Positions 736 to 15,623 of a DNA stretch of 64,000 bases are shown one piece after another. The DNA comes from Tsukamurella spumae (lineage in GTDB: Bacteria > Actinomycetota > Actinomycetes > Mycobacteriales > Mycobacteriaceae). The stretch covers positions 1 through 64,000 of the forward strand of contig NZ_JAAXOQ010000001.1 of the NCBI RefSeq assembly GCF_012396015.1, read 5' to 3'. A program made the position numbers and the translations under genes. Below the pieces are notes generated by a model that was given only the letters and a program-made list of their open reading frames with translations, was not told the origin of the DNA and made no database searches. How positions within the stretch are numbered: the stretch's first letter is position 1; the number at the start of each line of letters is the position of its first letter.

Positions 736-807
736 GGTCCTATGGCTCAGTGGGAGAGCGTCCCCTTCACACGGGGAAGGTCGCTGGTTCGATCCCAGCT
801 AGGACCA
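736..807 (+). tRNA. tRNA-Val(CAC), integration target
   Basis: The cloverleaf has acceptor GGTCCTA/TAGGACC, anticodon stem TCCCC/GGGGA and loop TTCACAC (anticodon CAC). CCA is not encoded. The last 20 bases of this gene and the 7 after it recur exactly at 15597-15623, so an element has inserted at the 3' end and restored the gene with its own copy. The tRNA remains intact. Confidence 0.95.
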
Positions 808-814
808 CCGAGAA
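788..814 (+). repeat. attL core (27-bp direct repeat)
   Basis: The bases from the T-loop TTCGATC through the tRNA 3' end and 7 bases beyond are identical to 15597-15623. After the core the two flanks stay similar for about 40 more bases (one A/G mismatch and one single-base indel), because both carry a version of the tRNA terminator. This is the usual geometry for tyrosine-integrase insertion into a tRNA gene. Confidence 0.88.
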
Positions 815-1063: not shown

Positions 1064-1357
1064 GTGCCTACCCCACCCCCTACGCGTCGCCCAGGCGGCG
1101 CCCACCGCATGAGCTGGCGCACGCCCGCGTCGCTCGTCCCGCCCACCATCGCCGGCATCCCCGCGCAGGCGGTCTCGGTCGCCGTCGCCGCTGCGATGCT
1201 CGGCGTCAGCGACCGCAGCATCCGACGGACGATCGATTCCGGTGACCTGCCTGCCCGCAAACTGCCGACGGGTGCCCTGAGCATCCGCATCGCCGATCTC
1301 GACGCGGTCGGTGTGCCTGTGGGGCCGCGGACCGCGATGAAGGGCGGTGCGCGATGA
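1064..1357 (+). CDS. small HTH DNA-binding protein, possible excisionase
   Basis: This 97-aa protein starts with GTG behind a good ribosome site (AGGAG, 6 bases away). Residues ~35-85 form a MerR/excisionase-type helix-turn-helix (VAAAMLGVSDRSIRRTIDSG, then an ARKLP wing and an IADLD segment), as in the HTH_17 group of excisionases and phage regulators. The N-terminus is Pro/Arg rich. It is the first gene inside the left end of the element, and its stop overlaps the next start (ATGA), so the two are co-translated. It could direct excision or repress the following gene; the sequence does not decide between these. Confidence 0.6.
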   Translation: MPTPPPTRRPGGAHRMSWRTPASLVPPTIAGIPAQAVSVAVAAAMLGVSDRSIRRTIDSGDLPARKLPTGALSIRIADLDAVGVPVGPRTAMKGGAR

Positions 1358-2442
1358 CCAAGCCCAGCTACGCGCAGTTCGCCTCCGGCGTCCCCAACGG
1401 TCCTGGCCCCGACGACATCATCGACGTCGAGGTGGTGGACCCCGCGGAGGCGCAGAAGCCGAAGGCCGCGACCGAGCCGAAGCCCGAGCCGGACACGAAG
1501 GCCGAGCCGAAGCCCGACGCGGAGCAGAAGCCGGAGCCCAAGCCCGACACCGCCGACAAGCCCGCGGCGTCGAAGGCCTCGGCGGTCAAGGACATCAACC
1601 AGGTCACATCGAAGGACTCCGCGTCGACGATCGGCAAGTCCTTCGGCAAGGCCTACCTGGAGGCGGCGAAGAGCCCCATCAAGGGCATCCCGGCGATCGT
1701 CAAGGCCGAGTACAAGGCCGGTGCCGCGCTCGGTGACAAGCTCGCGGGGAAGATCGCCGGCGAGGGACTCCTCAAGAGCGCCAGCAAGATCGGCCTCAAG
1801 GCGGCCGGTCGCGCGATCCCGGGCCTCGGCACCGCCATCGGGCTCTACGCCGCCTACAACAGCTTCAAGCGCGGCGACGTCGTCGGTGGCGCACTGAACC
1901 TGGTGAGCGCGATCCCCGGCCCGATCGGATGGGTGGGTCTCGCGGGCGCGATGGTCTGGGATGCGCTCGACCTGGGCGGGAACAAGATCGGGCTGTGGGA
2001 CGAGCCCGACGGCAACTCGACCCACATCCTCCCCGGCTCCGCGAAGGACGTCGCCGGGGCGCGCGACCGGCTCGGCCGCGACGTGCCGGAGATGAGCAAC
2101 ACGATCAGGGAACTCCGAGAGAAGGAGATCACCGTCCGCGCGCTCCGCGAGGGGCTGGACAGCAGCACACCCGTCGGCGAGGCGATGCTGAACCTGTTGA
2201 TCGCCGTCGGCGGGATCGAACTCGCCTACGGGAAGGAGCGCCGCGCCGCGAGCCGCGCCGCCCGCAAGGCCCGCGGCCAGTCGATCGGCCGCCCCAAGGC
2301 CTTGTCCGAGGCGAAGGCCGCGCAGCTGGTGCGACTGGTTCACGCCGGCGAACCGGTGGCGATGGCAGCCGAAGTGTTCGGGATCAGCCGCGCCTCCGCG
2401 TACCGGATCGTGAAGGACGCCGCGCTCGTGGAGTCGGCGTGA
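1354..2442 (+). CDS. chimeric protein: glycine-rich hydrophobic domain fused to serine-resolvase C-terminal half
   Basis: The 362-aa product has three parts. Residues ~30-75 are a Lys/Pro/Glu-rich spacer. Residues ~90-230 are Gly/Ala-rich and hydrophobic, with a helical hairpin around 150-205 (GRAIPGLGTAIGLYAAYNS, IPGPIGWVGLAGAMVW). Residues ~237-358 match the second half of small serine recombinases: the DRLGRD motif (two catalytic arginines), the STPVGEAMLN E-helix region, the GRPKAL linker and a terminal HTH (AAEVFGISRASAYRIVK). The catalytic serine, its adjacent arginine and the whole first half of the catalytic domain are absent, so it cannot act as a recombinase alone. The hydrophobic part resembles pre-toxin segments of polymorphic toxins, but I do not recognise a family. 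It starts with ATG overlapping the upstream stop. It may be a real fusion or the product of a deletion. Confidence 0.7.
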   Translation: MTKPSYAQFASGVPNGPGPDDIIDVEVVDPAEAQKPKAATEPKPEPDTKAEPKPDAEQKPEPKPDTADKPAASKASAVKDINQVTSKDSASTIGKSFGKAYLEAAKSPIKGIPAIVKAEYKAGAALGDKLAGKIAGEGLLKSASKIGLKAAGRAIPGLGTAIGLYAAYNSFKRGDVVGGALNLVSAIPGPIGWVGLAGAMVWDALDLGGNKIGLWDEPDGNSTHILPGSAKDVAGARDRLGRDVPEMSNTIRELREKEITVRALREGLDSSTPVGEAMLNLLIAVGGIELAYGKERRAASRAARKARGQSIGRPKALSEAKAAQLVRLVHAGEPVAMAAEVFGISRASAYRIVKDAALVESA

Positions 2443-3017
2443 ATGTTTAGCCATCCAACGGTGGACGCGGGAGACAACGTCCTCAGGCGATGGCGAGGAG
2501 GCGGGGCCTCGCCGCGAATGAGAGACTCGACCTCTATGTCAGAGAACAGCTGACTTCGCTCTCTGGCGTGCTGCATTTCCCTTTGCTCGATACTTACGGC
2601 AAAGGACTCTGTAACAGGCCACGCCTTCCGTGTTAGAAGATACCATTGAGTGACCGTCGTGGTGCGACCTTTCGGGTCGGCGATGGCAGAAAGGTCGTTC
2701 ACGGGCACCTTACGGTTACTGTGCACGAGGCCGCATTGATGGTCGCCGTCGCATTCCAGGTGAACTATTCCCCTATCGCGATCGGCTCGGAAGTGGTCGA
2801 GCAATACCTTCCCCGCGGCCTCGGGTGAGCTAGGTAGCTCCGCGGTCTGGTGTCCAGTTTCGGACCCTACGTCGATGAACCACTGAGAACCGGTCGTCAC
2901 AGTGGTCAGAAACCTCGCCAGCTCAACAGCTCGCTGCTCAGGTGTATCCGACCCATCCTTGACATCGAAACCGATATTCGGGGATTCCCAAAGAATCCTA
3001 CATCGCTGGTAGCTCAC
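2340..3017 (-). pseudogene. truncated paralogue of the immunity protein
   Basis: The frame starts with GTG at 3017 behind AAGGAG. Residues 1-190 align with the full-length protein at 3280-4128: shared features are a start with a Trp and SPN, ELARFL / ALAQYM, KAWPVTESFAVS / QTWPLTRAYAFS, and STVGWL / ATIGWL. Homology stops at the GWL motif (about 2448). The remaining 35 codons to the stop are simply the antisense of the resolvase-like gene. About 85-90 C-terminal residues of the family are missing. The break falls within a few bases of the stop of the chimeric gene (2442), so the same rearrangement probably cut this gene and brought in the resolvase fragment. Confidence 0.7.
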
Positions 3018-3279: not shown

Positions 3280-4128
3280 CTATGTCGCATTGGTTTGCGC
3301 TTCCAGCGCCGCGACCTGTGCGCGGAGGTCGTCGAGTGTGGGATTGCCGTAGGCGCGGTGTACAGAGTCGGACATTTCGAGGGTGAAGTTGGAAGGTTCT
3401 GCGCCGAGCTGTAACAGCCCGTATCCACTGGCCTCGTCAGGCTGCCAGGTCACTCCCGGCGCGAACTGGCTGGCATCGACCACGTCTTCTATCGGGATGC
3501 GGTCGAGCCACCCGATAGTCGCCACGTTCCTGGTTGTCGGCCTATGCCCTTCACCCTCGGGGAGGCCGCGTTCCATGCGGAGCCGGGCCGCGATCGCCGT
3601 CTGCAGCTTCAGTTCATCGTTCAGGTTTCGGCGTTCCATCGACTTTTGGAGCACTTCTTGAGCCATACTGAACGCGTATGCCCGCGTGAGCGGCCATGTC
3701 TGCTCAGCTTTATTCCACCATGATTTGACTATCTCGCCTGCAGATCCGAGGTCTTCCAATGGAATCTTAAGGTCGACTTGCACATGCCCTTTAGGTGAGT
3801 ACCTGAGCCTTCCTTTTCCGTCGATTTTGAAGAGCATCAATGGGTATCGAAAGCTCTGCTGCAGCTCGAACGCTTGGTTCAGGTAATCCGCAAGTGTGGC
3901 GGCAGTCTCGGTGGGGACCTGCTCTTTGATAGTGCGCTCCTTGCCATTGGAGGCGAGTATGTCGAAGTCGACTCGCCACGTTGACGTTGGCGCCAGGAAC
4001 AACATGTACTGAGCCAGCGCGAGGGCGCGCTCGCCGAGGTTATTGCCGTACCCGTCCATAGTGCCTGACTCGAGGTTCGGGGACGCGCAATAAAAGGTCC
4101 ACCGCGATTCGTATAGTGCCTCACTCAC
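3280..4128 (-). CDS. putative immunity protein (Imm52-like) for the adjacent nuclease toxin
   Basis: This is a 282-aa soluble alpha+beta protein without signal peptide or membrane segment, starting at GTG 4128. It lies 48 bases downstream of the Tox-REase-5-like toxin gene on the same strand. That is the usual immunity position, and Imm52 is the family known to pair with Tox-REase-5 (for example TsiT with TseT in Pseudomonas). The family call rests on this context plus its size and Trp-rich strands (WRVDFDI, WWNKAEQTWPLTRAYAF), not on a profile match. Base composition is clearly lower in GC than the neighbouring core genes, which suggests transfer. A truncated paralogue follows at 2340-3017. 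Its role would be to bind and block the nuclease in the cytoplasm. Confidence 0.6.
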   Translation of the reverse strand: MSEALYESRWTFYCASPNLESGTMDGYGNNLGERALALAQYMLFLAPTSTWRVDFDILASNGKERTIKEQVPTETAATLADYLNQAFELQQSFRYPLMLFKIDGKGRLRYSPKGHVQVDLKIPLEDLGSAGEIVKSWWNKAEQTWPLTRAYAFSMAQEVLQKSMERRNLNDELKLQTAIAARLRMERGLPEGEGHRPTTRNVATIGWLDRIPIEDVVDASQFAPGVTWQPDEASGYGLLQLGAEPSNFTLEMSDSVHRAYGNPTLDDLRAQVAALEAQTNAT

Positions 4129-4176
4129 GCCCGTACCGCCTGTCGATCGATTGCCGCATGCATAGCGTACATCGTA

Positions 4177-6006
4177 TCACCGCTTTCCAAGGTAAGAGGT
4201 CCACTGATCGATGGTTAAGACAGTGATTCGTTCTGCGGCACTGCCGAGCGTTGCGAGGGCGGCCTTAATTCCTGCTTGTGTGGCCGCATTGTTTGTCACC
4301 CACACGAGGCTGATTGATCTGCCGCCGTTCGGTAGGTCGTCCAATGCAGCCAATTGCCGGTTCGCTTGCTTGACTATTCCGTCGAACAATCCCTCCAGCC
4401 ATGGCTTGCCGTCGATATCTGCGAGCGTACCGTTCGGACCGGCGAGGGCGGCGTACCCAGTTCCGAGACTGTTCTTGGCATCGACGAGGGTCTTACCGAG
4501 GCCAGGAATATTGTTGAAGTAGCCGTCGAATTTCACACCGTTGACGTAGTAGCTGTACAGGTACGACACCAGCGTCACTAGCTGTTGGAAGATGCGGGCT
4601 GCCTCCATCGTCGCGGTGTCGGCGGTTCCTTCATTGGTGAAGCGCCATTCGCCGGGGCCTCCGTTGCTGCCCGGTGTCGGTGGCGGCATCGTCGGCTTCG
4701 GCTTCGGCCTGGCAGGCTTCCCCGGTTTCGGCGCTTGACCGCCGCCGCCGTTGCTGGCGCTGGGCGCGGAGCCGGTGCCGGGCCGTGGTGTGGTGCTGGG
4801 GCGTGGTTGTTGGGGGATGACGGGTAGGCCGGTGTCGGGGTCGATGCGGCCGGGTGTGGGTGGTTTGCCGGGGTCGGGCGGTTCGGTCGGGATCGGGACA
4901 ATCGGTGGTCGGGGGCCTCCGGGCAGGGGTGTGTTGGGGGCGGGTTGCCCGGGAGTATTGCCGGGCGCGGGCGTGTTGGGGATGGTCGGCGTTGACGGTG
5001 CCGGAATGATGCCGGGTTGTCCTGGCGGGGGCGGGACGATGACGGGGGCGTCGGGTTGCGGAGTGGTCGGGGTTGTCGGGCTAGGGCTGGTCGATGGCGG
5101 TTTGATCTCTGGTGGTTTGGGCGAGACGCCGGGCGCTGCAGGGGTCGGGGTGGCTGGCGTCGGTGGGGTCTGCCCTGGGCTGCCGCCGCCTGGTGGGATG
5201 TATGCGGGGGGAACCGGTGGGATCGTCGCCGGGGAGGGCGGTGTCCCTTCGTTGGGCTTGTCCTGGTCTTTGTCGCCTTCTTTGGGGGGTGCGCTCGGAG
5301 CGGGGTTTTCCCGGAACCATCCGTCGACGGTATCGCGGATTCGGTCGCCTTGATCTCCGAGCCAATTCGGTAGCTGGCGCGCAACGAAGTCGTAAGTCTC
5401 CTCCCGGTGGGTAGCGGCGTAAAATATACCGACAAGCGCAATGTAGAAAAGGAGGATCGCGAGGATCATCTCGATAATCGCCGCCGCGAGAACGAACGGA
5501 AGGACTACCTGCTTCATCTCGGGCTCGTCGGGCTCGTTCGGCGGTAGCGAGTCACCATGACCTGCGCCTCTCCCAACTCCGCCATTACCGGAGGGGGTGT
5601 CCTCCGACGAATCTTCTCCGCGGGAACTCTGCCCCGGGTTGGAGCCGGAACCTGACGCAGGTGCCTCGTTCTCGCTGGACCCGAGGGCGGGGGTGTTGCC
5701 GGCTGGGGATTGCGGTGAGAAGCTTGGTGTCGTTTCGGTCGGGGCTGCTGGTTCATGCCGAGATGGTGGCGTGGGGTCGATCTGTGTACTTTGGGATTGC
5801 GATGCGGCGTAGGCGGTCTGTGTCGGCGCTTTAAAGGGGTCGGCGAGGATCGGGTTGTTGTTGCCCTCCGGTCGGTCGATGGTCTGAACGAGGTCGCTGC
5901 CGTCGAGCGCGTAGCGGGTGGGGATCCTCTCCCCAGTGGTTACATCGAATGCCCAGGGGGTGTCGAAGCGTTTGACCTGGTTGCCGTCGCGGTCGAAGAC
6001 GGAGCT
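4177..6006 (-). pseudogene. Tox-REase-5-like nuclease toxin, 3' part (interrupted by IS)
   Basis: This frame is open from the IS edge (6006) to 4177, about 610 codons. In order it encodes: a segment with FDRDGNQV, TPWAFDV, IPTRYALDG and LVQTIDRPEG, a module common in secreted actinobacterial proteins; a Ser/Pro-rich linker; a transmembrane stretch beginning at the Met at 5517; a ~220-residue Pro-rich linker; and a C-terminal nuclease domain. Counting from the Met at 5517, the nuclease shows FDG at 330-332, VDAK with the D-x-K at 346-348, and glutamines 384 and 388 (KQANRQ). This is the PD-(D/E)xK pattern of Tox-REase-5. The 5' end lies beyond the IS at 7277-7518. There is no convincing ribosome site before Met 5517, so whether any toxin is still made is unclear. 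Confidence 0.68.
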
Positions 6007-6068
6007 TGACCCGGTTCTCCGGACACCTGATCTGTAGCGTTGTTGCTGCAGGAGAGGAGTCCGTGACT

Positions 6069-6356
6069 ATGCCGAAGCCGAAGCCTGAGGAGTTCCGTCG
6101 CCGGGCGGTGAAATTGGCCCGGGAGGAAGGTGCGTCCGTGGCGCAGGTCGCCAAGGACCTGGGTATCTCCGAATCCGGTTTGCGCAGGTGGATGAGCATC
6201 GATGATGTCGACGCCGGCAGAAAAGAGGGCCTGAGCACCAGCGAACGGGCCGAGCTGGCCCAGTTGCGCCGCGACAAGAAGCGACTGGAGCAGGAGGTGG
6301 AGATCCTCAAACGCGCGAGCGCGTACTTCGCGCGGGAGAACATCCTCCCAAAATGA
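6069..6356 (+). CDS. IS3-family transposase OrfA
   Basis: A 95-aa protein of the transposase_8 type: an N-terminal helix-turn-helix (RRRAVKLAREEG, AKDLGISESGLRRWM) is followed by a leucine-zipper-like helix (LRRDKKRLEQEVEILKRASA). The ATG at 6069 is used here; a GTG at 6063 lies closer to the purine-rich GGAGAGGAG and is an alternative. It binds the IS ends and multimerises. The slippery heptamer CCCAAAA at 6347-6353 directly before the TGA lets ribosomes shift -1 into OrfB. Confidence 0.92.
   Translation: MPKPKPEEFRRRAVKLAREEGASVAQVAKDLGISESGLRRWMSIDDVDAGRKEGLSTSERAELAQLRRDKKRLEQEVEILKRASAYFARENILPK
6347..6353 (+). promoter_or_regulatory. -1 ribosomal frameshift site (CCCAAAA) between orfA and orfB
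   Basis: The heptamer has the X XXY YYZ form in the OrfA frame (codons CCA AAA, then TGA). Slipping back one base gives CCC AAA and continues as ATG ATG TTC in the OrfB frame, making the OrfAB transposase. This is the known expression mode of IS3-family elements. OrfB can also start alone at ATG 6353. Confidence 0.7.
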
Positions 6357-7240
6357 TGTTCTCGCTGGTCCACGAACTGGCCGCAGACGGCATTGCCGTC
6401 GCGGTGGCCTGCGAGAGGCTCGAGGTATCGACGTCCGGCTACTACGACTGGCGGGACCGGCCGGCGTCGGCGCGTGATGAAGCCGATGCGCACTTGGCGG
6501 ACAAGATCCGCGACATCCACGCGCAGTCCCGCAGCTGTTACGGCGCACCGCGAGTGCACGCCGATCTGCGCCTGGCCGGCGGGGAGCGAACGGGCCGCAA
6601 ACGGGTAGCGCGACTGATGCGGATGCTCGGCGTCGCCGGCATCGGAGGATCACGAAAGGTTAAGCGTCACAGACGTGCAGAGGCCGTCTTCGACGATCTA
6701 GTGCAGCGGCAGTTCACAGCCGACGCCCCGGACGAACTCTGGTGCACGGACATCACCGAGCATCCCACCAAGACCGGGAAACTCTACTGCTGCGGCGTCC
6801 TGGACAGCTTCTCGCGCCGCTTGGTCGGATTGTCGATAGCCGATCACATGCGCACCGAGCTGGTCGTCGACGCGCTGCAGTACGCGCTGTGGCGCCGCGA
6901 CCCAGATGGCGAGACAATCGTCCATTCAGATCGTGGAAGTCAGTTCACCTCTTGGGTTTTCGGTGATCGACTGCGTCGGGCGGGGCTGCTCGGATCGATG
7001 GGGCGAGTGGCTTCCAGTGTCGACAACACGATGATGGAATCGTTCTGGTCCACGATGCAACGCGAGCTGCTCGACACCCAAGAATGGGACTCGCCTGAGC
7101 AGCTCGCCTCGGCGATCTTCGAGTGGGTCGAAGCCTGGTACAACCCCCGCCGGCGGCATTCCAGTATCGGATACCTCGCGCCGATCGAGTTCGAGAACCT
7201 CTACTACGAATCCCTGCACGCCACCACACAGGTAGCCTGA
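6353..7240 (+). CDS. IS3-family transposase OrfB (DDE integrase core)
   Basis: A 295-aa protein with HTH_21 near residues 40-100 (SCYGAPRVHADLR) and an rve integrase core. The catalytic triad is visible: Asp in WCTDITE, Asp in HSDRGSQFTS and Glu in DNTMMESFW. The C-terminal YNPRRRHSSIGYLAP motif is typical of the family. It overlaps OrfA by 4 bases and is fused to it through the frameshift site. It catalyses excision and insertion of the element. Confidence 0.95.
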   Translation: MMFSLVHELAADGIAVAVACERLEVSTSGYYDWRDRPASARDEADAHLADKIRDIHAQSRSCYGAPRVHADLRLAGGERTGRKRVARLMRMLGVAGIGGSRKVKRHRRAEAVFDDLVQRQFTADAPDELWCTDITEHPTKTGKLYCCGVLDSFSRRLVGLSIADHMRTELVVDALQYALWRRDPDGETIVHSDRGSQFTSWVFGDRLRRAGLLGSMGRVASSVDNTMMESFWSTMQRELLDTQEWDSPEQLASAIFEWVEAWYNPRRRHSSIGYLAPIEFENLYYESLHATTQVA

Positions 7241-7276
7241 ACACCACCAACCCAAACTGTCCGGGAAACCGGGTCA

Positions 7277-7518
7277 AGCTCCAACCGCTCACCCCAGGCG
7301 TTGAGGTGGGAGACGGCGAACCCGCAGCCGATCAACAGGGCTAGGCCGACGACCAGTCCGGCAGATTTCCGGGCGAGCGCGCGGAGCTCGTCGTTAGCGG
7401 TGGCATCTGTGTTCACGCTGCTCGTCGCAGGTGGTGTCGGCGCAGCCGATGCAGCGCCCGTCTCGGGCGCGGGTCTTGGTTGCTGAACGGGAAGTTGTCG
7501 GGTCTCGTCCGCGGACAT
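7277..7518 (-). pseudogene. toxin gene, 5' part (cut by IS)
   Basis: The gene starts with ATG at 7518 behind AAAGGG. The 80 residues before the IS hold a Pro/Ala-rich N-terminus followed by a transmembrane helix (SAGLVVGLALLIGCGFAVSHL), then NAWGERLEL where the IS begins. After removing the IS and one AGCT copy, the downstream toxin frame is one base out of register. Either an extra indel occurred or the two pieces were not originally adjacent. The topology suggests a membrane-anchored toxin precursor. Confidence 0.6.
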
Positions 7519-7935
7519 GGGCCACCCTTTCGATACACTTACGACATCACGGCACGTCAGGTGGACTATCGTCATCCGCCCGAACCTGACCGTAGCGGAT
7601 ACTCATCGCGTCAACGCACTGCAGATTCGATATCGCCCACCATCTCACCGAGCGTAGATCCCTCGCCGTCCCGCGGCTTTAGTGTGACGCTGGCGAACCA
7701 AACATGCTGGTGTAGTGCACTTTACGGGCTGTCGCTCGATGCGGGGTCGTCGCGGAGTCTGCAGGAGTGTGCGGTTTCAAGCCGTACGTCGACGTCGCAC
7801 GTGGGCAGAATGTTCGACAACTGTGATCGATCTGTTATCTACACGCATTGCAAATTCCGTGTCCACTGTGGTGCTATTGGGGCTGTTGTTACAGATGTGA
7901 CATTGTTGATCGACTTCACCTGGGGAGACCACGAC
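7519..7935. promoter_or_regulatory. divergent promoter region between toxin and porin genes
   Basis: These 417 bases separate the divergently transcribed toxin 5' end and the MspA-like porin gene. No gene is convincing here. The open frame on the plus strand simply runs into the porin and has no ribosome site. The part near 7820-7915 is AT richer than the surroundings and probably holds the porin promoter; I cannot fix -35/-10 boxes with confidence. Confidence 0.35.
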
Positions 7936-8847
7936 ATGCCCACCGCGCCTCGCATCCACCCGTCCCGGCTACCGCGGACGCTGATCGCGCTCTGCGTCGC
8001 TGCGGCCGCGGTCACGCTCGCCGCCGGCCCGGCGGTCGCCGCGCCCGCTCCAGCGCCCAAGCCGACACCCGCAGCGGCGGCTGCTTCGCCGGCTGCAGCT
8101 ACGGTGGCTCCGCCGCCGGCGCCCCTGATGCGCGTGCCCGTTCCCGGGCAGATCCGCACTGGCGAGTTCGCCGACACCAGCCGTGAACTGATCACCCGCG
8201 ACGGCTGGAAGGTCACCGTCTCCAAGTTCGGCGAGAAGCTCGATTCCGTCCCGCCTTTGAACCGATCGCCGCAAAGCTTCGAAGGATTCAGCTCCGTAGG
8301 TGGCGAAGCGAAAATCGAAGCCGCGCACCCCAACGACCCGAAGCTCAAGCCCACCAGTCGAATCAAGTCCGCCACGCTCACCACAGGCGTTCAGGTCGGC
8401 TGTGCCGTGACCGCCGATAGTTTGACTGTGGGTGGGTCGCTGTCGAACGCGACCACAGCCTCGATCACCCCGACCGTGACCGCGTCCGGCACCGTCACCG
8501 GACAGGGCCAAGGCGGCTCGAGCGGCGGCCAAGGCGGTGGCAGCGTCTCCGGCACCGGAACAGGCTCGTTGTCAGGCACCCTGTCGGACACCGTCACCGA
8601 GACCGGCAACATCTCCGGCGTCCTCAAACCCGGTACCACCAAGGACATTCCGTACGCGAAGAAGGCTGTCGTCGGCCCCAACGCCCAGGTCATGTCCCGC
8701 GACATCCGCATCGCTGTCGACAACTGCATTGGCGGCGTCCAGATTCGGACATATGCGACAGTTGCGGTCAGTACCGATGCTACCGACGATACCCTCACCA
8801 CGTTCGGCAAGCCCATCTTCCTGACCCGCCCGGAGCAGAACCGGTAG
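7936..8847 (+). CDS. MspA-family porin-like protein
   Basis: A 303-aa protein starting at ATG behind GGGGAGA. Residues 1-34 are a signal peptide ending in VAA-AP, followed by an Ala/Pro-rich stretch to about 65. The mature part follows the MspA pattern: a DGWKVTVSKFGEKLDSVPPLN segment, then SRIKSATLTTGVQVGC, a beta-rich middle with a Gly/Ser-rich loop (about 190-225), and a C-terminal VDNCIGGVQIRTYATV region. Two cysteines could form a disulfide. MspA proteins are outer-membrane channels of mycolic-acid bacteria. It lies divergent from the nuclease toxin on the same mobile element, so a role in toxin passage or in resistance is conceivable but unproved. Confidence 0.8.
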   Translation: MPTAPRIHPSRLPRTLIALCVAAAAVTLAAGPAVAAPAPAPKPTPAAAAASPAAATVAPPPAPLMRVPVPGQIRTGEFADTSRELITRDGWKVTVSKFGEKLDSVPPLNRSPQSFEGFSSVGGEAKIEAAHPNDPKLKPTSRIKSATLTTGVQVGCAVTADSLTVGGSLSNATTASITPTVTASGTVTGQGQGGSSGGQGGGSVSGTGTGSLSGTLSDTVTETGNISGVLKPGTTKDIPYAKKAVVGPNAQVMSRDIRIAVDNCIGGVQIRTYATVAVSTDATDDTLTTFGKPIFLTRPEQNR

Positions 8848-9038
8848 GGCGCCGATACGTCGCTGAGTATGGCCTCTCAGTTCACGCCCATCCACATCGC
8901 GGATCTCACGACCAAGGACTCACCGCGATCCGCGATGCCGGATCGCCACGATTGCGGCGACGACCGGCAACGGCCACGGGCTGCAGCAAGTGGGCCGCAT
9001 TGCTCGAGAGCGCCTCGCTCGCCCATGCGGCACAGCTA

Positions 9039-14142: not shown

Positions 14143-15432
14143 TTACTCCTCGATCCCCAGCTCCCTGAGCCGCTCCTGCACTCGCCGTTGAACCTCCGCC
14201 TCGACGGGGTCGATTGCGGCGGCGACCGGCCGCGGGGGAGCGGCGGGCCTGGCAACCGGGGCAGCCTTCGCGCTGATCCGCTCGGCGACCCGGACGTCCG
14301 CCCCCTGTGCCTGGACTATGTACCGCTGCGCGGCGGTGATGGTGCGGTGGCGCAGGCGCGCCATCATCTCGGCGAGCGTCGCGCCGCTCTCCGCCGTGAT
14401 CGTCATCCCGGTTCGACGCAGGTCGTGGTAGGTGAACTGGGCGAGCCCGGCGCTTCGTTTCGCCTTCTGCCACGCATTGTCGAGGGTGCTGGGGTGGAGT
14501 GGTGCCTCCGGATCGGTGCGCGACGGGAACAGCCATGCGCGGGGGTGTTCGGCGACGAAGCGGTCCAGATGCTCCCAGAGCTCCGGCACGATGTGCGGCG
14601 GCACCACCACCGCCTCTTCAATGCCGCTGGCCTTCGAGCCGGTGACGATCAACAGGCTGGGCTCACCTGCTGAGCGGCCGCGGTTCTGCACCAGGTGCCG
14701 CCGGATCCAGAGGCGCACCGTGGGTGCTTTCGGGACGGACGCGGCGGGATCGGTCGCCGCGTCCTGCCGTTGCAGCGCTGTCACCTCGCCGGCACGCAGC
14801 CCGCACCACGCCGCGATGAGAATCCCGGCGCGGTCCTGCTCGGGCATCGCGTCCATCAGAGCGGTGAGCTGCTCCAGGGAGGCGGTCTGAGGCTTCCTCG
14901 CCGCGGAGACAGTGCTCGCGCCCTTGATCCGGAGCGGGTTGGTTCCGATCAGACCGCGGTCCACAGCGTCGTTGAGCATGGCGCGAAGATTCTCGTAGCA
15001 CCGGGCCCGCTGCGTCGGATACTTCGGGCAGCAGCCGCGGTACCACGAGTCGCACAGCTCCCTGGTGAGGTCCGCGAGGGCAGTGTCGCCGAGCACGGGG
15101 TTGATGTGGAGACGGAAGCGGCTCGCGCTGTTGTGACGGTGTGAGTGGCTCTTTAGCGTCGGGATCCACTGCTCCGCGTACTCGGCGACGGTGAGCCGGT
15201 GAGCCTCCGCTGCGGCCTCGGCCTCGGCGTCGAGCCGCGCCTGCTCGGCAGGGCTGACCCAGGTGCCATAGTCGATGGCGACTCGCACCTTGCTCAGCGC
15301 GGCGTCGGCCTGGCGCGCCGTGCCGTAGGTGCCGAGGGGGTACCGCACGCCGTCGGGGCCGGTGTACTGCGCCTGATAGCGCCCGCTCCGCTGCTTCCGT
15401 ACCGTCCCGAAGCCGCGTTTCGCCCGTGCCAT
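14143..15432 (-). CDS. int: tyrosine site-specific integrase
   Basis: A 429-aa phage-type tyrosine recombinase read from ATG 15432 behind GAGGGG; the frame opens further upstream without a better site. The N-terminal arm-binding part contains KQRSGRYQAQYTGPDG, a core-binding SAM-like region spans ~70-170, and the catalytic domain covers ~185-385. Catalytic residues are seen as the first Arg in AAWCGLRAGEVTAL, HxxR in FTYHDLRRTG, His in ARLRHRTITAAQ and the Tyr nucleophile in QRYIV. The C-terminal tail (VEAEVQRRVQERLREL) is coiled. It lies 165 bases from attR, with the repeated GCGCACAAT sites right upstream of its start, so it may regulate itself. Confidence 0.95.
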   Translation of the reverse strand: MARAKRGFGTVRKQRSGRYQAQYTGPDGVRYPLGTYGTARQADAALSKVRVAIDYGTWVSPAEQARLDAEAEAAAEAHRLTVAEYAEQWIPTLKSHSHRHNSASRFRLHINPVLGDTALADLTRELCDSWYRGCCPKYPTQRARCYENLRAMLNDAVDRGLIGTNPLRIKGASTVSAARKPQTASLEQLTALMDAMPEQDRAGILIAAWCGLRAGEVTALQRQDAATDPAASVPKAPTVRLWIRRHLVQNRGRSAGEPSLLIVTGSKASGIEEAVVVPPHIVPELWEHLDRFVAEHPRAWLFPSRTDPEAPLHPSTLDNAWQKAKRSAGLAQFTYHDLRRTGMTITAESGATLAEMMARLRHRTITAAQRYIVQAQGADVRVAERISAKAAPVARPAAPPRPVAAAIDPVEAEVQRRVQERLRELGIEE

Positions 15433-15456
15433 GCCGCCCCTCACCGCAACCGTTCC

Positions 15457-15476
15457 GCGCACAATATGCGCACAAT
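15457..15476 (+). promoter_or_regulatory. putative integrase arm-type sites, right pair
   Basis: GCGCACAAT occurs at 15457-15465 and 15468-15476, same orientation and 11-bp period, matching the left pair at 858-877. It overlaps the upstream region of the integrase gene. Position and duplication suggest integrase binding. Confidence 0.55.
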
Positions 15477-15596: not shown

Positions 15597-15623
15597 TTCG
15601 ATCCCAGCTAGGACCACCGAGAA
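15597..15623 (+). repeat. attR core (27-bp direct repeat)
   Basis: This is an exact copy of 788-814: the 3' end of tRNA-Val(CAC) without the rest of the tRNA. The sequence 5' of it (ACTGTACG) is unrelated to the tRNA body, so this is a fragment, as expected for the distal att site. Confidence 0.88.

What the first reader, a model, noticed from the sequence alone, without database searches (positions are those of the whole stretch)
3280..7518. Nuclease toxin / immunity module on a tRNA-integrated element, disabled by an IS
A membrane-anchored protein with a Pro-rich stalk and a C-terminal PD-(D/E)xK nuclease (FDG, D-x-K, then a KQANRQ helix) is followed by a candidate Imm52-like gene. Tox-REase-5/Imm52 pairs are known from type VI and polymorphic-toxin systems. 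A membrane-anchored version in a mycolic-acid bacterium, carried on an integrative element beside an MspA-like porin, is not one I recognise. An IS3-type insertion has split the toxin, so the immunity gene may persist alone as protection against siblings that carry the intact toxin.
Basis: partly seen in the sequence, partly recalled or inferred. Interest (0 to 1): 0.72.

Follow-up and report, generated by a model that had tools for sequence, protein, structure and literature searches.

The report
Broken copy of porin-linked toxin operon
This stretch holds the damaged remains of what looks like a bacterial weapon (a nuclease-like toxin with antidote genes) whose uninterrupted relatives in other mycolic-acid bacteria often sit beside a gene for one particular kind of outer-membrane pore, which hints at an undescribed way for these bacteria to deliver toxins.

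Summary
The toxin/immunity observation holds, but the anatomy differs. Window 4177-6000(-) is the 3' part of a polymorphic toxin. Its tip is a distant Tox-REase-5 nuclease: four relatives match PF15648 above cut-off, the window itself does not. The adjacent immunity gene (3280-4128) is not Imm52 by the tests run. A second, truncated immunity gene (2448-3017) is 82% identical to another genome's immunity protein. The IS3 element (6001-7282) did not split the toxin: beyond it (7283-7518) lies part of a separate small two-TM gene. About 2.7 kb is missing relative to an uninterrupted paralogue in the same genome, and no target duplication flanks the IS.

The larger find is the family. In Tsukamurella, Rhodococcus plasmids and unnamed genera of the same family, toxins with related N-termini and swapped tips (16 tip clusters in 23 toxins) often lie beside a two-TM protein and an MspA-family porin. 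MspA is listed within 6 kb of 33 of 61 module hits (0.9 expected); the 34 toxin-linked MspA proteins compared share one clade. I propose an MspA-linked polymorphic toxin system in which the porin is outer-membrane conduit or receptor; that role is inferred. My seven literature searches found no description.

The parts
788..814 (+). attL-like copy: 3' end of tRNA-Val (tRNA 736-809)
   Evidence: 27-bp exact repeat with 15597-15623; tRNA
15597..15623 (+). attR-like copy of the tRNA-Val 3' end
14143..15462 (-). tyrosine-integrase-like ORF next to attR (named from the sequence by recall, not scanned)
   Evidence: ORF
1354..2442 (+). chimeric ORF whose C-terminal part is the C-terminal half of a serine resolvase; it abuts the truncated immunity gene
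   Evidence: Resolvase PF00239 residues 237-309, HTH_7 312-354
2448..3017 (-). second immunity gene, 3'-truncated; 82% identical over 190 aa to the immunity protein of the G005 toxin locus
   Evidence: about 317 bp of L007 absent at its 3' end
3280..4128 (-). adjacent (presumed cognate) immunity gene, 282 aa
   Evidence: 34%/30% identical to the ORFs in the same position in G013/G005
4177..4650 (-). toxin tip: Tox-REase-5-like nuclease domain (NGVKFDG, VDAK, KQANRQ, VWV)
4651..5403 (-). Pro-rich linker; includes a stretch 93% identical in DNA to L007 just upstream of the divergent tip (4742-4877)
5404..5517 (-). hydrophobic segment between the module and the Pro-rich linker (MKQVVLP...FYAATHR)
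   Evidence: hydropathy
5836..6000 (-). remainder of the conserved 'PWAYD..PT.Y..LVQ..ILADP' module (its upstream part is missing)
6001..7282 (+). IS3-family element with imperfect terminal inverted repeats starting GGAGCTTGACCCGG; no flanking direct repeat
7283..7518 (-). 5' part of the small two-TM protein gene (partner gene), cut at the IS
8098..8847 (+). MspA-family porin gene of the toxin-linked clade, divergent from the toxin operon

Best explanation
The region is a broken copy of an MspA-linked polymorphic toxin operon. In most uninterrupted Tsukamurella copies the set is: MspA-family porin, small two-TM protein, a protein with a weak HTH match and a C-terminal TM, large toxin (three N-terminal hydrophobic helices, a long Pro/Gly/Gln-rich stalk, often a conserved ILADP module, and an exchangeable C-terminal tip), then one or more immunity genes. 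Shown by sequence: gene set, tip exchange, the MspA link, and that the window copy lacks, relative to the paralogous locus of the same genome, the 3' end of the two-TM gene, the HTH-like gene and about the first 450 toxin codons, with an IS3 at the junction. Inferred: the toxin is anchored in the inner membrane; the stalk crosses the wall and reaches the outside through, or together with, the MspA-type pore; the tip is passed into a neighbouring cell and cuts nucleic acid unless the cognate immunity protein is present. In the window the weapon is disarmed while the immunity ORFs stay open (one full, one truncated), which could still protect against siblings.
For: Uninterrupted relatives with the REase-5-like tip and an immunity ORF directly downstream in G005 and G013. 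Paralogous locus in the same genome, G000:C38, with a WHH tip (PF14414 E 3.8e-14) and two SUKH-1 immunity genes. Tip exchange: 23 toxins fall into 16 tip clusters, while a 99-residue N-terminal anchor stretch of 14 Tsukamurella toxins is 70-96% identical. MspA listed within 6 kb of 33 of 61 module hits (window included) against 0.88 expected; outside the genus 23 of 47. The 34 toxin-linked MspA proteins compared lie in one clade (98/96) that also holds 2 of the 19 unlinked rows and both rows of unknown status. The two-TM proteins of Tsukamurella and of the other genera are homologous (hhalign probability 98.1, E 8.6e-14). Three Rhodococcus plasmid records annotated by others show in a row: MspA family porin / hypothetical / hypothetical / large protein (one named TNT) / hypothetical. 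Missing segment: window 7283-8863 aligns to L068 4169-2588 and window 5837-6004 to L068 7004-6840.
Against: No experiment; the role of MspA is inferred from genetic linkage alone. 28 of 61 module hits have no listed MspA within 6 kb (the MspA list was cut off by the tool, and some module hits are weak), and 5 of the 18 Tsukamurella loci mapped besides the window have neither MspA nor the two-TM gene in the stretch read (L008, L077, L078, L079, L113). The ILADP module is not specific to the system: it occurs in other members of the class (36 of 394 genomes) and was not found in some toxins (L007, L008). The MspA rows of the tree were chosen by me, not drawn at random. The HTH matches of the third gene are below the curated cut-offs. 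The window immunity protein has no recognised family. No structure could be predicted.
Confidence: 0.72

Rival explanations
1. The linked MspA is the receptor or entry pore on target kin (or a toxin-release factor) rather than the producer's export conduit; linkage keeps toxin and receptor type matched.
For: Linkage and the separate clade fit equally well; kin-specific receptors are known for contact-dependent inhibition (recalled).
Against: The porin travels with a two-TM partner and, in the nine loci read outside Tsukamurella (L080-L082, L116-L118, L163-L165), lies upstream of the toxin in the same direction, which looks more like an export set.
Confidence: 0.3
2. The toxins are ordinary type VII (ESX) substrates and MspA is a hitch-hiking neighbour on mobile islands.
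For: Prophage-borne polymorphic toxins with Tox-REase-5 or TNT tips in M. abscessus carry WXG100 domains (PMC8092301, passages read); two relatives of the tip, L012 and L014, have weak, below-cut-off WXG100 matches.
Against: None of the ten toxins of this family scanned has a WXG100 match in Pfam at E<=0.01; those examined have N-terminal hydrophobic helices or a signal-like segment; the linkage recurs on large contigs and on plasmids in several genera with changing gene order and orientation.
Confidence: 0.15
3. The IS3 inserted simply into a fused toxin gene whose N-terminus is the 7283-7518 piece.
For: Both pieces are on the same strand, either side of the IS.
Against: The piece ends inside a small gene found whole elsewhere in the genome and genus; uninterrupted toxins start with another N-terminus; the five IS ends read outside the window share GGAGCTTGACC with both window ends, leaving window flanks GAC and AAC with no duplication.
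Confidence: 0.05
4. The tips act on eukaryotic hosts or amoebae rather than on bacteria.
For: Tsukamurella species can be opportunistic pathogens (recalled); one plasmid tip is annotated TNT.
Against: Adjacent immunity genes (SUKH, Imm52, window family) and an orphan immunity fragment point to bacterial targets.
Confidence: 0.07

Closest known systems
Polymorphic toxin systems (Zhang et al. 2012, PMC3482391; passages read)
   Same: Constant N-terminus, exchangeable C-terminal tips (Tox-REase-5, Tox-WHH), downstream immunity genes
   Different: 'MspA' does not occur in the 300,000 of 357,715 characters held; no MspA-based trafficking class in the passages read
Tox-REase-5 (PF15648) with Imm52 (PF15579)
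   Same: Tip motifs; a relative of the same architecture (L080) has a REase-5-like tip (E 0.0026, below cut-off) followed directly by Imm52 (E 3.2e-11)
   Different: The window tip itself does not reach PF15648; its immunity protein is not Imm52 by sequence
M. abscessus prophage toxin-immunity cassettes (PMC8092301, passages read)
   Same: Mycolic-acid hosts, integrated elements, tips including Tox-REase-5, TNT and Endo-NS2
   Different: Those carry WXG100 domains and WXG100 partners for type VII secretion, none found here; the one mention of MspA in that paper is a porin gene on plasmids
CDI / two-partner secretion (CdiB/CdiA)
   Same: Works-like analogy only: an outer-membrane beta-barrel encoded beside a long toxin with an exchangeable tip (part recalled, part PMC3482391 passages)
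   Different: MspA, not a TpsB-type barrel; no Pfam match to such domains in ten toxins scanned; mycolate envelope
MspA porins
   Same: PF09203, E 3.5e-41 in the window
   Different: Toxin-linked copies form their own clade, apart from 17 of the 19 unlinked MspA rows compared

Membership tests
Tox-REase-5 (PF15648) | Pfam gathering score | tested here: not met
   No hit for the window tip at E<=1; siblings L007/L008 score 21.3/21.8 against 25
Tox-REase-5 (PF15648) | Homology to bona fide members | tested here: met
   HMM of four PF15648-positive relatives finds it at E 1.4e-12
Tox-REase-5 (PF15648) | Motif order Y, FDG, EAK, Y, Q, W (as listed in PMC3482391) | tested here: met
   Y34, FDG41-43, DAK57-59 (D for E), Y66, Q99, W117
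Tox-REase-5 (PF15648) | Restriction endonuclease fold | not testable with these tools
   Structure prediction switched off
Imm52 (PF15579) | Pfam match | tested here: not met
   No Imm52 hit for 3280-4128 or 2340-3017 at E<=1
Imm52 (PF15579) | Profile similarity to an Imm52 protein of the same system | tested here: not met
   hhalign probability 0.2 against L080:7755-8471
Polymorphic toxin system | Constant N-terminus with exchangeable tips | tested here: met
   16 tip clusters in 23 toxins; 99-residue anchor 70-96% identical in 14
Polymorphic toxin system | Immunity gene directly downstream | tested here: met
   SUKH-1 after WHH tip, Imm52 after REase-5-like tip; window-type ORF in G005, G013; protection itself not tested
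Type VII (WXG100) toxin | N-terminal WXG100/LXG domain | tested here: not met
   No such match at E<=0.01 in ten toxins; the window toxin's own N-terminus is missing
MspA | PF09203 gathering score | tested here: met
   141.5 bits against 22.9
IS3 | IS3 transposase model, terminal inverted repeats | tested here: met
   NF033516 E 1.9e-91; imperfect inverted repeats, first 16 bp identical
IS3 | Target-site duplication of a simple insertion | tested here: not met
   Flanks GAC and AAC

The most novel reading that the evidence does not exclude
A sub-clade of MspA porins, with a small two-TM inner-membrane partner, is the dedicated mycomembrane translocator of a large family of membrane-anchored polymorphic toxins: a two-partner-like delivery system specific to mycolic-acid bacteria. 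It would show how a defined protein crosses the mycomembrane.
Probability: 0.38. Interest if true: 0.9.

Novelty: new variant of a known kind. Interest (0 to 1): 0.7.

Why it matters
How proteins cross the outer (mycolic-acid) membrane of these bacteria is largely open (recalled). A toxin family whose genes recur beside one clade of MspA-type pores and one small membrane partner gives a compact, testable candidate, and suggests that antibacterial polymorphic toxins in mycolic-acid bacteria need not be type VII substrates. The window adds a snapshot of decay: toxin disarmed at an IS junction, one immunity gene whole, a second one left as a remnant.

Tried and rejected
Tried, led nowhere: direct Pfam, NCBIfam and PHROG scans of the window tip and immunity gene; phage collection for the tip (no match); plasmid collection for the Tsukamurella anchor (no match); genome-contig scan with the module alignment (alignment not conserved enough; the anchor alignment was used instead).

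Rejected: an AGCT target duplication at the IS, my first reading, because the other copies carry the same GGAGCT end. The weak G007 hit (L006/L009) was not counted: the frames there show no anchor, module or tip by eye; G007's locus is L077. The idea that the ILADP module defines the system was dropped.

Rows dropped or chosen before counts: in the co-localisation count 137 listed MspA rows were transcribed out of 228 matches in all; the tool cut its list, and the few listed rows that I left out lie, by eye, on contigs without a module hit. The 6-kb limit was my choice. The 61 module hits include the window. For the MspA tree I fetched 40 MspA stretches and used 16 from loci already held; they are not a random draw. 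One unlinked row (L119) was not recovered; L124 and L157 were labelled unknown, and both fell inside the linked clade. 'Unlinked' means no module hit listed nearby; neighbours were read only for L134 and L135. The 22 toxins compared with the window were those I could delimit; L075, L079, L110, L114 and L165 were left out as broken or uncertain.

Literature: seven searches, read as listings; passages of PMC3482391 and PMC8092301. None of this described an MspA-linked toxin family; the library holds open-licence papers only.
Full report
What is there. On the minus strand, reading from right to left, the window has: the 5' part of a small gene (7518-7283), an IS3 element (7282-6001), an open frame of 607 codons followed by its stop (6000-4177), a 282-codon ORF (4128-3280) and a further ORF (3017-2340) whose homologous part ends at 2448. 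To the right, on the plus strand, is an MspA-family porin (8098-8847; PF09203 E 3.5e-41). The whole lies between two copies of a 27-bp repeat of the tRNA-Val 3' end (788-814 and 15597-15623), with an integrase-like ORF (named by recall) beside the second. The genus is Tsukamurella: same-genus genomes in the set have contigs of the same lengths as named Tsukamurella contigs that hold the same loci (269294, 143026, 406251, 339279 and 3203785 bases).

The tip. The last 157 codons carry NGVKFDG, VDAK, KQANRQ and VWV. Pfam gives no hit for the window itself. A family-wide search found the tip in 7 of 401 genomes, own included. Four of these relatives, from other genera, match Tox-REase-5 above cut-off (L012 1.2e-13, L013 4.6e-12, L014 1.8e-14, L015 1.5e-09), and the two closest, in G005 and G013, match just below it (21.3 and 21.8 bits against 25). 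A model built only from the four positive relatives picks this frame out of 774 open stretches of the window at E 1.4e-12, the next at 1.3. Profile comparison with the tip of another genus (L080) gives hhalign probability 97.7. So it is a distant member by homology, though it fails the Pfam score.

The immunity genes. The product of 3280-4128 is 34% and 30% identical to the ORFs that directly follow the toxins of G013 and G005. It is not Imm52 by Pfam or by profile comparison with an Imm52 protein (probability 0.2). The second window gene (2448-3017) is 82% identical over 190 residues to the G005 immunity protein but only 24% identical to its neighbour. It lacks its 3' end; about 317 bp present in L007 are absent at that point. 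Together with a linker stretch that is 93% identical in DNA to L007 just upstream of a tip only 44% identical in protein, this fits replacement of an older tip/immunity pair, with the old immunity gene left behind. That history is inference.

The IS junction. The piece at 7283-7518 is not the toxin's start. It is 85% identical over 80 residues to a gene of about 115 codons elsewhere in the same genome (G000:C38); 9 of 16 genus genomes searched, own included, have a match, one of them (G003) weak only. These genes encode two hydrophobic helices. The five IS ends read outside the window and both window ends begin GGAGCTTGACC, so the IS is 6001-7282 and its flanks, GAC and AAC, are not a duplication. 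By alignment with the uninterrupted paralogous locus in the same genome, window 7283-8863 corresponds to L068 4169-2588 and window 5837-6004 to L068 7004-6840, so about 2.7 kb present there is absent here: the end of the two-TM gene, the HTH-like/TM gene and roughly the first 450 codons of the toxin. I read this as an IS-associated deletion.

The family. Most Tsukamurella loci keep the same gene set with changing order and orientation: MspA divergent from the rest (L007, L068-L071), all in one direction (L074, L075), or the toxin divergent from the other three (L072, L073, L076). Of the 18 loci with the toxin anchor mapped besides the window, 13 have MspA (in L110 a partial match) and 12 the two-TM gene in the stretch read; five (L008, L077, L078, L079, L113) have neither, although stretch length and contig ends limit this. 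The third gene's HTH matches are weak and below the curated cut-offs; it ends in a hydrophobic helix. Tips differ: WHH (PF14414 E 3.8e-14), nonspecific endonuclease (PF13930 E 1.3e-19, L082), REase-5-like, a tip annotated TNT by others; 7 of the 10 toxins scanned gave no Pfam match at E<=0.01. In 23 toxins I found 16 tip clusters, whereas a 99-residue anchor stretch of 14 Tsukamurella toxins is 70-96% identical, median 84.

The MspA link. A search with the stretch around the ILADP module (window 5446-6000) gave 61 hits in 41 of 401 genomes. MspA is listed within 6 kb of 33 of them (window included); 0.88 would be expected from the number of MspA genes per genome. Outside the genus it is 23 of 47. 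These are lower bounds, because the MspA list was cut off. Against this, 28 of 61 have no listed MspA nearby. Three Rhodococcus plasmid records, annotated by others, show MspA family porin, two hypothetical proteins, the large protein and a further hypothetical protein in a row. In a tree of 55 MspA proteins, chosen by me, the 34 toxin-linked ones fall in one clade (98/96) with two rows of unknown status and two labelled unlinked; 17 of 19 unlinked rows lie outside. The two exceptions sit beside a 317- or 356-codon secreted-protein-like ORF without a recognisable tip. Several long branches are present and the root is a midpoint. The two-TM proteins of Tsukamurella and of the other genera are homologous (probability 98.1, E 8.6e-14).

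The module alone is not diagnostic. It occurs in 36 of 394 genomes across the class, and was not found in some toxins (L007, L008).

How it most likely works. Three N-terminal hydrophobic helices (or a signal-like segment in L080) hold the toxin in the inner membrane (topology inferred). The long low-complexity stalk could span the wall. A pore of the MspA type is the natural candidate for passage through, or display at, the mycolic-acid membrane; MspA is an octameric outer-membrane pore in M. smegmatis (recalled). The two-TM protein would be the inner-membrane partner, and the HTH-like/TM protein a membrane-bound regulator; both roles are guesses from anatomy. The hydrophobic segment between module and linker in the window, and the different one in G005/G013 (by eye), may help the tip cross the target's membrane (inference). 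The rival that MspA is the receptor on kin fits the linkage nearly as well.

Novelty. Polymorphic toxins, Tox-REase-5, MspA and orphan immunity are all known. I found no account of an MspA-linked toxin family in seven full-text searches (listings) or in the passages read of two papers. The M. abscessus prophage toxins with a Tox-REase-5 tip use WXG100 domains; none of ten toxins scanned here has such a match at E<=0.01. I file it as a new variant of a known kind.

Noticed in passing
window 1354-2442(+): A 362-codon ORF fuses an N-terminal part with KPEP-like repeats to the C-terminal half of a serine resolvase; full-length resolvase-like ORFs lie near the related loci L007 and L068, so this looks like a recombination chimera.
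   Followed up: partly
L075 and L079 (G005): Two further toxin loci of this family look broken by transposable elements: in L079 IS3-like ORFs lie between the toxin body and a tip-like ORF; in L075 a transposase-like ORF abuts the truncated toxin end and the same IS3-like pair follows (ORFs named by eye, not scanned). With the window that is 3 of 19 Tsukamurella loci.
   Followed up: partly
L083 4698-5522(-) (G014): An immunity gene of the window family stands without a recognisable toxin beside it; the tip search found no match in G014: an orphan immunity gene.
   Followed up: partly
L081 10399-11001(+): An Imm52 gene (E 1.6e-09) lies downstream of a toxin whose tip looks HNH-like by eye (no Pfam match), a probable orphan; 86% identical to the Imm52 after the REase-5-like tip in L080.
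   Followed up: no
G000:C22:56262-56516: The own genome has a third hit of the ILADP module in a 1470-codon open frame, not examined; a similar one is in G009:C22:248168.
   Followed up: no
L162 2555-4210(-) (G014): An MspA gene and a two-TM-like gene stand beside a 551-codon protein with a different TM-rich N-terminus and no recognised tip; may be a further branch of the system.
   Followed up: no
L159, L160: MspA genes of the toxin-linked clade next to a 317- or 356-codon secreted-protein-like ORF that begins like the toxins (PAERCE..) but has no recognisable toxin tip.
   Followed up: no
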